From: a virus
DNA: 57,846 nucleotides
IMG/VR virus record: IMGVR_UViG_3300009467_000016
Coordinates: 1-57,846 of that record
Strand: one strand, 5' to 3'
Shown here piece after piece: positions 10,394-48,074 of this stretch. The position numbers were made by a program, and so were the translations under genes. Under the pieces are notes generated by a model that was not told the origin of the DNA, did no database searches, and saw only the letters and a program-made list of their open reading frames with translations. Numbering within the stretch: position 1 is the stretch's first letter; the number at the start of each line of letters is the position of its first letter.

Positions 10394-10409
10394 TGTTTCA
10401 CGTGAAACA
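10394..10409. promoter_or_regulatory. parS: parS-type site 1 (divergence region)
   Basis: TGTTTCACGTGAAACA is a perfect 16-bp palindrome and matches the consensus bound by chromosomal ParB proteins. It lies between the leftward and rightward arms. No ParB or ParA is encoded in the window. Confidence 0.85.
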
Positions 10410-10535
10410 TTCCTGATGAGTGAATTTATATGCAATGTATACTGGTTAGTCCCAAATAGTGGAACAAGTTAGCTATTAGTGTGCTTTTTATGCAACACTC
10501 TTAAAGAAAAACACATAGCTAGGGTATTTTTGGGG

Positions 10536-10563
10536 TTGACATGGGGTGTTATTTGTGTAAAAC
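10536..10563 (+). promoter_or_regulatory. Rightward promoter 1
   Basis: TTGACA (10536-10541), 16-nt spacer, TAAAAC (10558-10563). An 18-bp perfect palindrome built from two AAAGTTTAA halves (10582-10599) lies about 20 bp downstream, where a repressor could block it. Confidence 0.65.
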
Positions 10564-10580
10564 TACGGTAGTAGGTAGTA

Positions 10581-10746
10581 GTTAAACTTTAAAGTTTAAT
10601 TATCATGTTAAAACAAAAAAACACTTAACTAAAAGTTTAACTTACTACTTCGCATTAAGAAAAGTTTAACTTTAAAGTTTAACTACAGTTAATTATTTCT
10701 TATTATTTGTATAAATTACAACAAAACACTTGACTTAAAGTTTAAC
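10581..10746. repeat. Array of AAAGTTTAAC elements
   Basis: Six copies are seen: GTTAAACTTT at 10581-10590 in reverse, AAAGTTTAAT at 10591-10600, and AAAGTTTAAC at 10632-10641, 10661-10670, 10674-10683 and 10737-10746. The first two form a perfect palindrome, two are direct repeats 13 bp apart, and the last lies in the spacer of rightward promoter 2. They may be operators of the late-arm promoters or origin iterons. Confidence 0.75.
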
Positions 10747-44430: not shown

Positions 44431-47400
44431 TGAGAGTTATTGACGCAAAGTTTATAAACCCCAGCCAACAAGAGCCTGACTTCATGACCTACACAGGTGG
44501 TGAGAAGGATACGTTTGGCATTAGTGATCTCACAGAGGATCACAACTACAACGTCATTGAAGCGCAGATGAAAGCTCGCTTTGGTATGTCTGAGAAGTCT
44601 CACGACAGGCAAGAAGTCGTAGATAAGTGGATTAATTACAACAGAAAGTTTAACGTAGGTAACACCCTTAGTGTACTAGGTGAAGCCAGCTACTTAAGCA
44701 AAGCTGACGATGAAGAGAAAGTAAAAGCTCTCAACTCGTACAAGCTCTTTGATAACATGAAGGGAGCCTTTAGTGGTGGTACAGCAGCAGAAAAGCTAGA
44801 CAGTGTGTACGACTACGGTATGGCTTTAATTGTGGACCCTGTTAACTTGGTCAGCTTTGGTGTTGGTAAGTTAGCTACAGGCGGTGGATCAAAAGTAGCT
44901 GCAGGTGCGGCAAAAGAAGCCTTAGAGATATCAGCTAATCAGATACTACGTAAGGCAGGACAGACGGGTGCTAAACGATCTGCACTTAAGCCAGCCGTAA
45001 AAGCTGAGATAGGTAGAGCGCGTCAACGTGTACTTAGTAAGGCACTAAAAGGCGAGGCTGTAGAAGGCTTAGAGGAAGGCGTTGTAGAGGGTGCGCTTAA
45101 GAAGGCTGCAACTAAAGAGTTTAGATACGGCATAGGCACTGAGACTGTTAGTGCTATGGGTATTGATGCCATTCAGCAGAACATGGCGTACCGTGAGGTA
45201 GGCTTTCAAGATGAGTTCAGCTATCTAAACTCTGGCTTAATTGCTGGTGGGGGTTTCTTTGGCTATGGATTAGCTAAAGCGTTTGGTATGATGGACGGTA
45301 CAGACCTACCCAAGTCTGTAGCGTTAGAGGCTTATGATGCTGCTGTAACGGCAGAGGCTGCAGCTAGAAAGATAGCAAGGCAAGAAGGTGAAGCCACCTA
45401 CAAAGATGCTATGGCAAACCTAGCTAACGATGAAGAACTCCAACGCAAAACTATGGAGAGCCTAAAGAATAACACTGCTGCTGCACAAAGTTGGGCTGAA
45501 ATGGTAGCCTCTGGTAAGCGTATAGCAGAAGAAACAGGTGACAGGTATGAAGGTAGTGGTGCAGAGGGTTTATCCGCTTTTATCTTTGGTAAGAAAGATT
45601 TGCCAGAAGGCCGAAACTTCAAAGGGCTTTTTGATATATTTAATGATGCGGGAATTGATCTGGCGTATGCAGATGATGTATGGCAGGGTACTACCCACTT
45701 TGTAACTAGCACAGTCAAAGCCCTACCACAAAATGTCAAGAATGAAGTAGATAGTCTGTACAAAAATACTGTACTTAAGTTAGACACAGTGTATGAAAGC
45801 AAGACAAACCTAGATGACGCTATGGACTTCATGGCAAGTGATTATAGTTCTATGGGTGCTAGGATGGGCGTCATGGGCGGCTTGGGAAGAGAAGTAGAAA
45901 AGATACGTAAAGTAAAGCAAGCCACAGGACAAACTAACCTTAAAGTCACAGGGGAGGAAATGCTAGATGGTATCATAGACCCTAGCACAGGAACAGCTAA
46001 GAACGTTGACAAAGTAGAGCGTAGCTTGATGGGACGCTCACAGGATAACCTTATACGTATTCTTGTAACTCATCCCGGTACTACTGCGCTTAACTTGTTA
46101 GGCTGGGTCAACGCCTCTGGTATGCAATCTCTGTCTGATGGGCTTAGGGGTGCGCTTTATGGTGGGGCTTCTGTAGCACAGTACATAACAGGCAACAAAG
46201 CCAATGCTGTTGAGTACGCTGAGAAGTCTAAGCTTATGCTAACCCTGCAAGGCGAAAAGATGAAAAACTTGCTTAACCCTTTTGCTACACAAGAGGAAGC
46301 ACTTAACTTCTTATCGCTTAACCCTAAGATGCGTAAAGAACTATTCCGCTATGTATCTGGTGGCCTAGACAGTAAGGATGTTCTTAAAACGTTAGACTTA
46401 GAGTTTGATGATCTTGAAAAACCGGGCGTCTTTGAGAAAGTTATTGATACATTCCAAACAGTGTATGGCGTTAAGGCTGTAGATGTATTAACTAAGACAC
46501 AAGAGTTTATGTACAACATAGACAAACAAATACGCATTAAGTACAACATGAGTTACCAAGACTTCATAGGTGCTAAGGATGCTCAAGGTCAACCCCTACA
46601 CTGGGCTAAGATGCGCTCTGATGATTTCGTTGCAATACAAGCCACTGCTGTTGAGGACTCACTGCGTAGTGTGTTCTCTAAGTCCTTTGGCGGTGGTGAC
46701 TTTAAGAGAGACCGTAACATTGTAGAAATGGCTGCTAAAGGTATAGAGGATGCACGTAAGTATCCTATCCTTGGTGCTATGATCCCGTTTGGTCAGTTCT
46801 TTAACAACACTATTGCCTTTATGACTGACTACTCAGGCATTAGTATAGTACACTCTTATTTTGCTAAGAACAACAGAGACCTTATGGAAATGTCTACTAA
46901 GGCTGCTGTAGGTTTGACTTCTATTACTGCCATGTCTGAATACGAAATGAAGAACATGGATGAAGGCTTGGCTTGGCATGAGGAACGTGACGATGATGGA
47001 CAAGTAAGGTCACGCCTGTATGACTTCCCGTTTAGCTACTACAAAGGCATAGGACGTATTGTAGCGCACTTTAGACGTGACGGTGAAGTACCACCTGAGT
47101 TGTACGATGATATCGTAACTACGTTTGGTACAGCTAACCTTACACGTTCTTTGGGTGAGTCATCAGCCTCTGCGTTTGACTTTATGAAGGACGTTGCTTC
47201 TGGTAAATATCCTGATGCAGTAGAAGGCTTACAAAAAGCTATGGGTAATGTAGGTTCTATGTACCTGTCAGGGTACAGCAGACCGTTAGACCCTCTTAAT
47301 CAAATTACAGCGTTTGCTATGGGTGACGCCTACAATGAAACAGATCGTAACATTGGTAGTAAGTTTATCAACAACTCCACACGTTACGTTGAGAGTATCT

Positions 47401-48017
47401 TTGACGGCTTTGACCAGCTTACAGGAATACCTACTGCTGCAGGTACTGCACTAGGATTAGACATGACAGAAACACCTGCTAAGGAAAGACCTTTGGAAGA
47501 AAGACCTAGAGGCGTAGCTATTGGGCGTATCTTTGGTTACAGGGACTCACCTGCACCACAGGCTATTGATAAGATGTTTGCCGATATAGGTAAGCCTAAG
47601 TGGAAGACAGATATTAAGTCTGCTGTGCCAGAGGCCAACAATACGCTTAACAGGGTTATAACTAAATACTTAGAAGCAGAAGCAGCTAAGGTTGTCTATG
47701 GTGATAAATGGAAGAACGCATCATTAGATCAAAAGATATCTGATCAAAAATTAGCAGTATCTAAGGCTAAGAAAAGAGCCTTAGCTGAGTTGTATAGATC
47801 AGGCAACCCTACAGATAAACGCCACCGTGAAATGTTTAAAATTAGTAGGCGAGGGTCAGGTGTCACTATGACTGACATGGAGGAAGCTTTAGAGGAGATT
47901 GGCATAGATAAGAAAGTAGAAGACTTATCATACGATCAGCTACGATTGCTAAGGCGTTTTCTAAAGATGGAGAAGCGAGACTTAAAACGCTCATCCAGAG
48001 AATCACTTAGAGGTTAA
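44430..48017 (+). CDS. Large internal virion / DNA ejection protein, 1,195 aa
   Basis: This is the last gene of the late arm and one of the largest. It begins MRVIDAKFINPSQQEPDFMT, has hydrophobic glycine-rich stretches (SFGVGKLATGGGSKVAAGAA; GLIAGGGFFGYGLAKAFGMM) that could cross membranes, and long charged helices elsewhere. By position and size it resembles T7 gp16-type ejection proteins, but I see no transglycosylase motif in it; that activity may instead lie in the 286-residue gene at 41.4 kb. Confidence 0.75.
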   Translation: MRVIDAKFINPSQQEPDFMTYTGGEKDTFGISDLTEDHNYNVIEAQMKARFGMSEKSHDRQEVVDKWINYNRKFNVGNTLSVLGEASYLSKADDEEKVKALNSYKLFDNMKGAFSGGTAAEKLDSVYDYGMALIVDPVNLVSFGVGKLATGGGSKVAAGAAKEALEISANQILRKAGQTGAKRSALKPAVKAEIGRARQRVLSKALKGEAVEGLEEGVVEGALKKAATKEFRYGIGTETVSAMGIDAIQQNMAYREVGFQDEFSYLNSGLIAGGGFFGYGLAKAFGMMDGTDLPKSVALEAYDAAVTAEAAARKIARQEGEATYKDAMANLANDEELQRKTMESLKNNTAAAQSWAEMVASGKRIAEETGDRYEGSGAEGLSAFIFGKKDLPEGRNFKGLFDIFNDAGIDLAYADDVWQGTTHFVTSTVKALPQNVKNEVDSLYKNTVLKLDTVYESKTNLDDAMDFMASDYSSMGARMGVMGGLGREVEKIRKVKQATGQTNLKVTGEEMLDGIIDPSTGTAKNVDKVERSLMGRSQDNLIRILVTHPGTTALNLLGWVNASGMQSLSDGLRGALYGGASVAQYITGNKANAVEYAEKSKLMLTLQGEKMKNLLNPFATQEEALNFLSLNPKMRKELFRYVSGGLDSKDVLKTLDLEFDDLEKPGVFEKVIDTFQTVYGVKAVDVLTKTQEFMYNIDKQIRIKYNMSYQDFIGAKDAQGQPLHWAKMRSDDFVAIQATAVEDSLRSVFSKSFGGGDFKRDRNIVEMAAKGIEDARKYPILGAMIPFGQFFNNTIAFMTDYSGISIVHSYFAKNNRDLMEMSTKAAVGLTSITAMSEYEMKNMDEGLAWHEERDDDGQVRSRLYDFPFSYYKGIGRIVAHFRRDGEVPPELYDDIVTTFGTANLTRSLGESSASAFDFMKDVASGKYPDAVEGLQKAMGNVGSMYLSGYSRPLDPLNQITAFAMGDAYNETDRNIGSKFINNSTRYVESIFDGFDQLTGIPTAAGTALGLDMTETPAKERPLEERPRGVAIGRIFGYRDSPAPQAIDKMFADIGKPKWKTDIKSAVPEANNTLNRVITKYLEAEAAKVVYGDKWKNASLDQKISDQKLAVSKAKKRALAELYRSGNPTDKRHREMFKISRRGSGVTMTDMEEALEEIGIDKKVEDLSYDQLRLLRRFLKMEKRDLKRSSRESLRG

Positions 48018-48021
48018 TACG

Positions 48022-48060
48022 AAAAAAGGGGCGGTCACAACGACTGCCCCTCTTGCTTTG
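48022..48060. terminator. Bidirectional terminator between convergent arms
   Basis: A 9-bp stem (GGGGCGGTC, loop ACAAC, GACTGCCCC, one G-T pair) lies at 48028-48050. On the minus strand it is followed by six T residues, so it ends the early arm strongly. On the plus strand it is followed by a weaker T-rich run and ends the late arm. Confidence 0.9.
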
Positions 48061-48074
48061 TTTCACGTGAAACA
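48059..48074. promoter_or_regulatory. parS: parS-type site 3 (convergence region)
   Basis: TGTTTCACGTGAAACA occurs exactly between the terminator and the last minus-strand gene. Together with site 1 it places one parS site at each junction of the two transcription arms. Confidence 0.85.

What the first reader, a model, noticed from the sequence alone, without database searches (positions are those of the whole stretch)
10394..48074. Three perfect chromosomal parS sites without a ParB gene
TGTTTCACGTGAAACA occurs exactly at 10394-10409, 17064-17079 and 48059-48074. Three exact 16-mers are not expected by chance in 58 kb. They match the host-type ParB consensus, and two mark the divergence and convergence points of transcription. 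The phage may recruit host ParB to segregate a plasmid-like form, to organise or silence its DNA, or to titrate ParB from the host.
Basis: partly seen in the sequence, partly recalled or inferred. Interest (0 to 1): 0.9.

Follow-up and report, generated by a model that had tools for sequence, protein, structure and literature searches.

The report
Phage carrying its host's centromere sites
A marine phage in which no partition protein was found carries three perfect copies of the 16-letter site that bacteria use to pull their chromosomes apart; its close relatives keep such sites while the DNA around them changes, which suggests that the phage borrows the host's chromosome-segregation protein.

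Summary
Observation confirmed. Three exact copies of the chromosomal parS palindrome (about 2e-5 expected) lie in a complete 57.7-kb HMO-2011-type phage map in which no ParB was found: one in the divergent promoter region, one in a variable TerL linker, one at transcriptional convergence. The sites are conserved. Of 30 relatives that reach past the convergence gene, 28 have the exact site and none a near miss. All 9 TerL relatives at 90% identity or more have the TerL site (6 with one end mismatch); 71 more distant ones do not. 13 public phage records checked lack it.

The pattern recurs in another podovirus group: at one place the best match has 0-1 mismatches in 43 of 72 loci and 6-8 in the other 29, and 42 of the 43 fit the bacterial consensus, varying only at its degenerate position 5. 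Phage phi29, reported to use host ParB (Spo0J) for spore entrapment, has four such sites, one at transcriptional convergence.

Best reading: host ParB loads on the phage genome and positions or inherits it outside the chromosome. ParB recognition is well supported but untested; the purpose is inferred. The principle is known (phi29, SGI1); this version was not found in the literature searched.

The parts
10394..10409 (.). parS site 1, divergent intergenic region
   Evidence: exact match; exact site in the same region in 5 of 5 relatives with TerL above 85% whose contigs cover the place
17064..17079 (.). parS site 2, inside the N-terminal linker of TerL (reads xxT GTT TCA CGT GAA ACA, VSRET)
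48059..48074 (.). parS site 3, transcription convergence point
48027..48051 (+). terminator-like hairpin directly before site 3
   Evidence: fold of 48010-48080 z-score -4.27, a stretch that also holds the palindrome; hairpin kept in most relatives shown, not in L240-L243
16933..18516 (+). terminase large subunit (TerL) carrying site 2
   Evidence: 76-79% identity over the full query to CRP-2, CRP-603 and CRP-207; start codon not certain
44430..48017 (+). large protein whose end precedes site 3, probably of the late (structural) region
   Evidence: ORF; anchor of the convergence survey; family and function not tested
48643..50559 (-). ribonucleotide reductase, leftward module beyond site 3
   Evidence: phrog_367 E 2e-181
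54204..56288 (-). DNA polymerase
   Evidence: phrog_17 E 3.7e-79
56302..57552 (-). DnaB-like helicase
   Evidence: phrog_19 E 2e-41
2881..3807 (-). tyrosine-type integrase
   Evidence: phrog_1 E 2.6e-30; PF00589 E 4.7e-15
10578..10749 (.). repeat cluster (AGTTAAACTTTAAAGTTTAA and relatives) beside site 1, possible operators or origin
   Evidence: function not tested

Best explanation
The three sites are host-type centromere (parS) sites kept by selection so that the host's ParB CTPase loads on the phage genome. ParB would clamp at the sites, spread along the DNA, and link the phage genome to the host segregation apparatus (ParA, and in alphaproteobacteria polar anchors and SMC). The most likely benefit is that a non-integrated genome is positioned and handed to daughter cells during a slow or stalled infection, as phi29 is reported to use Spo0J to enter spores. 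Shown here: the sites, the absence of a detectable ParB, their conservation and their recurrence. Inferred: ParB binding (about 0.9 likely), spreading, and the segregation or positioning purpose (about 0.5-0.6).
For: Exact sites far beyond chance. Convergence: exact site in 28 of 33 loci found with the neighbouring protein, 10-489 bp after the end of the match, down to 47% protein identity, and no locus with a 1-2-mismatch site. TerL: site in 9 of 9 relatives at 90% identity or more (3 exact, 6 with A at position 1), no exact or one-mismatch site in 71 of 71 others; it sits in a variable linker with five fixed codons. Divergence: 5 of 5 relatives with TerL above 85% whose contigs cover the place. 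Extra sites in some relatives. No ParB_N in the window, in 50 of 50 records of HMO-type relatives, in 19 of 19 records of both groups. Second podovirus group: best match at one place is 0-1 mismatches in 43 of 72 loci and 6-8 in 29, none between; a control stretch in TerL gives 6-8 in 72 of 72; 65 of 67 sites within two mismatches in these 81 loci fit TGTTYCACGTGRAACA, in line with the bacterial consensus TGTTNCACGTGAAACA and its N (PMC7022226). phi29 has four TGTTTCACGTGGAACA sites, none expected in 60 shuffles, one starting at the base after gene 16 at its convergence point; Spo0J is credited with its spore entrapment (PMC9437464 passage). Control palindrome: 5 stretches in IMG/VR against at least 120 for parS.
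Against: No binding, stability or infection data. The host is unknown and its parS and ParB were not seen. All 13 public phage records of the wider kin lack an exact or one-mismatch site, so the sites are not needed for the basic cycle of this phage type. The phage has an integrase and may persist by integration. Only 4 of 80 RNR relatives carry the site; several at 85-90% RNR identity lack it, though some contigs end early. 29 of 72 loci of the second group lack the site, and DSL-LC04, HTVC023P and 023Pt_psg01 have none. Fixed runs of five or six codons also occur elsewhere in TerL.
Confidence: 0.58

Rival explanations
1. Host ParB is recruited, but for the lytic cycle: loaded ParB brings SMC or condenses and organises replicating phage DNA, or keeps it at a favourable place, with no inheritance involved.
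For: The second group shows no integrase match in 12 of 12 records, five of them about 60-62 kb. Two of the window's sites sit at the borders of its transcription domains.
Against: Site number differs among relatives, and four of the five about 60-kb records show a single consensus site, so no fixed architecture is needed. No direct data.
Confidence: 0.2
2. The sites are decoys: many phage copies titrate ParB and disturb host segregation and division.
For: Replicating phage would multiply the sites. SGI1 both stabilises itself and destabilises its helper plasmid through parS-like copies (PMC10954446 abstract).
Against: Few sites per record were seen in the two podovirus groups; a decoy would gain from arrays. 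Conservation at particular places is not needed for titration.
Confidence: 0.1
3. ParB bound at the sites silences or delays phage genes (a regulatory operator use).
For: Site 1 lies in the divergent intergenic region. Host regulators are used by alphaproteobacterial phages (CtrA, PMC9437464 passages).
Against: Sites 2 and 3 lie in a coding linker and after a terminator-like hairpin. Promoter-like matches near site 1 are not in excess, and the CtrA-like pattern is not enriched.
Confidence: 0.08
4. The palindrome is read by some other factor: a phage DNA-binding protein or an RNA hairpin.
For: The 16-mer can fold as a 6-bp hairpin; several window proteins match no family.
Against: No compensatory changes were seen. 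In the second group the frequent change is at position 5, as in bacterial parS. Similar sites occur in two podovirus groups and in phi29-like phages. No HTH_ParB in the window.
Confidence: 0.04

Closest known systems
Bacillus phage phi29 and Spo0J-dependent spore entrapment (Meijer et al. 2005, not held; known here through passages of PMC9437464 and PMC9429907 and from recall)
   Same: A podovirus genome with several parS-like sites, three of them overlapping annotated genes and one at transcriptional convergence (phi29 17243), reported to use the host ParB.
   Different: phi29 acts in a sporulating Firmicute with Spo0A control; the window phage is of another kind, has an integrase and a presumably non-sporulating alphaproteobacterial host, and its sites are exact palindromes.
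SGI1 parS mimicry of IncC plasmids (PMC10954446, abstract and outline seen)
   Same: A mobile element with two parS-like copies that uses another replicon's ParABS.
   Different: The target is a plasmid ParB, not the chromosomal one; the element is an integrative mobilizable island; binding and stabilisation were shown there.
Phage-plasmids with their own parABS (RedRock and relatives, PMC7157519 passages; P1 and N15, recalled)
   Same: A phage genome marked with centromere sites.
   Different: Those encode ParA and ParB; RedRock's parS are arrays of an 8-bp motif. No ParB was found here.
HMO-2011-type phages (CRP-1, CRP-2, CRP-603, HMO-2011)
   Same: TerL 72-79% identical; CRP-1 and CRP-2 have similar gene modules and an integrase.
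   Different: None of the 12 public records of this kin checked (nor the more distant phiM6) has an exact or one-mismatch site; CRP-603 has one two-mismatch site.

Membership tests
Chromosomal-type parS site | 16-bp palindrome of consensus TGTTNCACGTGAAACA | tested here: met
   three exact copies; consensus from PMC7022226
Chromosomal-type parS site | sequence kept by selection more than its surroundings | tested here: met
   scans up to two mismatches; best-match distribution; gapped flank identity 0.55-0.74
Chromosomal-type parS site | binding and CTP-dependent loading by a chromosomal ParB | not testable with these tools
   needs ChIP-seq or in vitro loading
Phage-plasmid ParABS system (P1, RedRock type) | own parB gene | tested here: not met
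   no PF02195 or PF17762 match in the window; no PF02195 match in 50 relatives' records, mostly fragments
Phage-plasmid ParABS system (P1, RedRock type) | own parA gene | tested here: inconclusive
   no ParA-like family among the window proteins scanned; no dedicated ParA search, and not every ORF was scanned
phi29-type use of host ParB | parS sites in the phage genome without own ParB | tested here: met
   window; phi29 sites; no gene annotated as ParB among the 27 annotated CDS of phi29
phi29-type use of host ParB | genome fate depends on host ParB | not testable with these tools
   infection experiment needed
phi29-type use of host ParB | Spo0A control and spore entrapment | not tested
   host presumed non-sporulating
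SGI1-type parS mimicry | parS-like copies on an element lacking the cognate ParB | tested here: met
SGI1-type parS mimicry | the copies bind that ParB and raise stability | not testable with these tools
   needs experiment
HMO-2011-type phage | related TerL and shared gene modules | tested here: met
HMO-2011-type phage | DNA polymerase with partial DnaJ domain | not tested
   feature described in PMC9038755

The most novel reading that the evidence does not exclude
Host centromere mimicry is a widespread, repeatedly evolved phage strategy. Different phages of non-sporulating bacteria carry chromosomal parS sites, some hidden as a VSRET or VPRET peptide in linkers of structural genes, and ride the host ParABS/SMC machinery so that a non-integrated genome is segregated like a plasmid without any partition gene.
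Probability: 0.45. Interest if true: 0.9.

Novelty: new variant of a known kind. Interest (0 to 1): 0.8.

Why it matters
It would show that marine and freshwater phages use the bacterial chromosome-segregation protein instead of their own, and that the phi29 case is one instance of a wider strategy. It offers a testable route for phage persistence in slow-growing bacteria in which prophages are said to be rare (PMC6918029 passage), gives a sequence handle for predicting it, and makes the fate of phage DNA at host cell division directly observable with ParB foci.

Tried and rejected
Chance and assembly artefact: rejected by shuffles and by many separate contigs. Decayed sites in relatives: in 293 family loci (2.89 Mb, some contigs held more than once) the form NGTTNCACGTGNAACN occurs only as the exact site (58) and as AGTTTCACGTGAAACA (9). 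Protein-level explanation of site 2: disfavoured, since the linker is variable, the 14 more distant TerL printed lack VSRET, and the codons are fixed. CtrA-like sites: 4 found, 2.6 expected. tRNA or attP remnant by ARAGORN and Rfam: nothing useful. Host by a genome scan: 9 loci, all in MAGs titled as unrelated taxa, uninformative. RNR as a marker of the site clade: poor. sigma-70 scan near site 1: 5 found, 5.0 expected. Contamination as a source of the many parS hits in IMG/VR: partly open; 5 of 50 longer contigs had a ParB_N match at E<=0.01, 3 of them above the cut-off, and nine contigs were sampled for phage genes (L012, L053, L041, L066, L071, L057, L115, L045, L079), seven with a PHROG match and two (L115, L045; one protein each) without.

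Mended on re-check: the counts took only sites of the form TGTT[TC]CACGTG[AG]AACA, counted L057 as a miss though it has the site, and compared flanks without gaps; one search repeats the count without that filter, with L057 left out as a copy of L441, and with gapped flanks (gapped identity 0.59 at site 1, 0.65 and 0.74 at site 3, 0.55 and 0.62 in the second group; ungapped 0.37-0.49, 0.41-0.78, 0.37-0.45). The flank comparisons used loci chosen for having the exact site, so the invariance of the site itself there is by choice; the unbiased figures are those.

Limits: the TerL, RNR and 11393-11743 surveys stopped at about 600 pattern rows and keep the best 80; the second-group survey found 224 and kept 80. 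The TerL tree is of the quick kind, and loci without a site in it are mostly fragments. The 50 contigs were picked by eye among the longer ones; L063, L076, L083 and L116, of like length, were not taken. L252 and L219 are 100% identical to the window in the anchor protein and may be the same virus. L131, L352 and L006 share one contig; so do L253 and L381, L237 and L283, L038 and L280, and L057 and L441.
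Full report
Observation. The 16-mer TGTTTCACGTGAAACA occurs exactly three times in the window, at the stated coordinates, with none in 100 shuffles and no other site within three mismatches. Composition predicts 2.1e-5 copies. The window is a virus record whose first and last 112 bases agree, so it reads as a complete map of 57,734 bp; on the circle the gaps between sites are 6.7, 31.0 and 20.1 kb. No ParB_N or HTH_ParB match is found at E<=10.

The phage. The nearest public relatives are Roseobacter phages CRP-2, CRP-603 and CRP-207 (76-79% TerL identity over the full query) and other HMO-2011-type phages. Gene content fits: integrase, primase, helicase, DNA polymerase, RNR and MazG-type genes run leftward; an endolysin, TerL and a head-tail adaptor run rightward. 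The rightward genes after 19.6 kb were not scanned and are taken as structural from the map of CRP-1 and CRP-2. In the papers, most members of subgroups I and III carry an integrase and CRP-3 integrates into a tRNA-Met site (PMC9038755 section 17; PMC6918029 passages). The words parS, ParB and partition are not in the main text of PMC9038755.

Site 1 (divergence). In a survey anchored on the protein at 11393-11746, 10 of 79 new loci carry an exact site (L132, returned too, is not counted again). Eight of the 79 have TerL above 85% identity; all eight carry the TerL site (five exact, three with the position-1 change). The five of them that cover the place (L352, L353, L355, L356, L360) carry an exact divergence site 755-1089 bp before the anchor; the other three contigs end within 820 bp of the anchor. 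L357 and L381, without TerL in reach, carry a site as well. Of 58 loci with at least 1.5 kb before the anchor, 6 have a site and 52 do not. L352, L360 and L381 carry a second left-arm site about 2.0-2.1 kb before the anchor. In L253, on the contig of L381, that extra site lies close after a GC-rich hairpin-like stretch with a T run. Among nine loci chosen for having the site (seven distinct), the flanks are 59% identical with gaps allowed (37-49% without gaps).

Site 2 (in TerL). Nine of nine loci with TerL at 90% identity or more carry the site at the same place (three exact, six with A for T at position 1). None of 71 loci with TerL at 85% or less carries an exact or one-mismatch site; two of these have a two-mismatch site elsewhere. 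The position-1 variant resembles the S. pneumoniae consensus AGTTTCACGTGAAACT (PMC7022226 table). The site lies in an indel-rich linker before the ATPase. Its five full codons GTT TCA CGT GAA ACA are fixed in nine of nine distinct TerL haplotypes, whereas 39% of 420 columns with an invariant amino acid keep a single codon; but fixed runs of five or six codons also occur at six other places in TerL, so the telling point is the fixed run inside a variable linker. A TerL tree built from residue 61 on puts the 13 rows with the TerL site in one branch (99% SH-aLRT). L097, a more distant relative with a site only in the divergent region, stands apart, so the label changes twice. Four rows were left out for short TerL, and L358 gave none.

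Site 3 (convergence). Of 33 loci found with the C-terminal part of the neighbouring protein, 28 carry an exact site 10-489 bp after the end of the match. Three of the misses (L234, L249, L250) are contigs that end at or inside the gene, and two are the distant L248 and L251. No locus shows a site with one or two mismatches. In 31 site-bearing loci with 19 distinct haplotypes, no run of invariant columns other than the site exists within 60 bp when compared without gaps; with gaps the flanks are 65% and 74% identical. Among RNR relatives only 4 of 80 returned loci (L272, L280, L283, L286) carry the site, some contigs being too short to tell. Twenty without it were looked at: the best match is 4-6 mismatches, and a homologue of the window's convergence protein was found within 4 kb in only three, two of them L248 and L251. 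So the site goes with the late-gene end, not with RNR.

Public phages. 13 records (12 HMO-2011-type or similar, and phiM6) have no exact or one-mismatch site; CRP-603 has one with two mismatches. The trait belongs to a clade, not to this phage type in general.

ParB. None of 50 records of site-bearing HMO-type relatives has a ParB_N match at E<=1, nor do 19 records from both groups. Most of these are fragments.

How common. Of 50 longer contigs picked by eye among the 120, 5 have a ParB_N match at E<=0.01 and 3 pass the cut-off. Host flanks and chromosomal contamination are not excluded for all. L012 has terminase, head, tail and connector genes of phi29 type and six core sites in three close pairs. 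L053 has the same terminase family and a DNA polymerase family and three core sites. L057 (TerL) and L066 (polymerase) are nearest to DSL-LC04 and to HTVC023P/HTVC027P-type podoviruses.

Second group. With the TerL of L057 as query, 80 loci were kept of 224. Of 72 that reach 2.2 kb past TerL start (L057 itself left out as a copy), the best match to the 16-mer at +1790 to +2100 has 0 mismatches in 28, 1 in 15, and 6-8 in 29, with nothing between; an equal stretch inside TerL gives 6-8 in 72 of 72. By TerL identity, 8 of 10 at 90% or more, 32 of 39 at 84-90%, 1 of 21 at 80-84% and 1 of 2 below fit TGTTYCACGTGRAACA, 42 in all; the 43rd is TGTTTCCCGTGAAACA in L452, which PMC7022226 lists as the Thermus thermophilus site. 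All 43 are read in the same frame as VSRET (29) or VPRET (14), in L441 within the long open frame after TerL. In 35 distinct haplotypes the flanks are 55% and 62% identical with gaps, and the site varies at position 5 (23 T, 12 C) and once at position 7. Over whole loci, 65 of 67 sites within two mismatches fit TGTTYCACGTGRAACA. Position 5 is the N of the bacterial consensus TGTTNCACGTGAAACA; its change alters the amino acid (S to P) but keeps a valid parS. This points to a constraint on DNA in the shape of ParB recognition. None of 12 records of this group has an integrase or ParB_N match. DSL-LC04, HTVC023P and 023Pt_psg01 have no site within two mismatches.

phi29. The phi29 genome has four TGTTTCACGTGGAACA sites, against none in 60 Markov shuffles. 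Site 17243 starts at the base after the end of gene 16, just before the two annotated terminators of the convergence. Goe1 has one exact site and one of the phi29 form, an unnamed gut phage record (MT835854) two exact sites and two with one mismatch, Hungatella phage CH17P1 one exact; Eggerthella phage LE1-1 and MT835814 have none within two mismatches. A passage in PMC9437464 states that Spo0J serves spore entrapment of the phi29 chromosome, citing Meijer et al. 2005; that paper is not held, and the passages seen do not mention parS sites in phi29. The window shares with phi29 both such sites and a placement at convergence.

Mechanism. The evidence fits a protein with ParB specificity, and no ParB was found in the phage; the host's own is the simplest reader. 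What it is good for is inference. Inheritance or positioning of a non-integrated genome fits phi29 and SGI1 (PMC10954446 abstract), and slow-growing hosts in which prophages are said to be rare (PMC6918029). An integrase is found in 6 of 7 records of site-bearing HMO-type phages searched, the seventh being a 20.5-kb fragment, so the sites are not simply a substitute for integration. SMC loading, titration and silencing remain possible.

Literature. Ten searches of the held open-access library, judged by titles, starts of abstracts and passages of some papers, showed no report of chromosomal parS sites in phages. What came nearest was phi29 with Spo0J, SGI1 with a plasmid ParABS, and phages with their own parABS. 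The library lacks most subscription papers and bioRxiv, so this is not proof of novelty.

Noticed in passing
L057, L086, L441-L519: A second podovirus group (DSL-LC04/HTVC023P-type) keeps a parS-like site in a coding linker after TerL: 43 of 72 loci that reach the place, 42 of them fitting the consensus.
   Followed up: yes
L012 (contig positions 5525-15366); L053 9083, 9112, 13975: phi29-like metagenome phages with several exact parS core sites, some in closely spaced pairs.
   Followed up: partly
L431 (phi29) 17243-17258: One of four phi29 parS-like sites starts at the base after the end of gene 16, at the convergence point before the terminators.
   Followed up: yes
10578-10749: Cluster of AGTTAAACTTTAAAGTTTAA-type direct and inverted repeats beside site 1; possible operators or replication origin.
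   Followed up: no
838-1269 (-): Small protein matching Na+/Pi-cotransporter (PF02690, E 1.1e-16), a possible phosphate-uptake auxiliary gene.
   Followed up: no
1458-1994 (-): T5orf172 domain protein (PF10544) between the replication genes.
   Followed up: no
L115, contig of 113 kb (positions 87713-92554): AT-rich viral contig with four exact parS core sites in about 5 kb and no ParB_N match; identity unknown.
   Followed up: no
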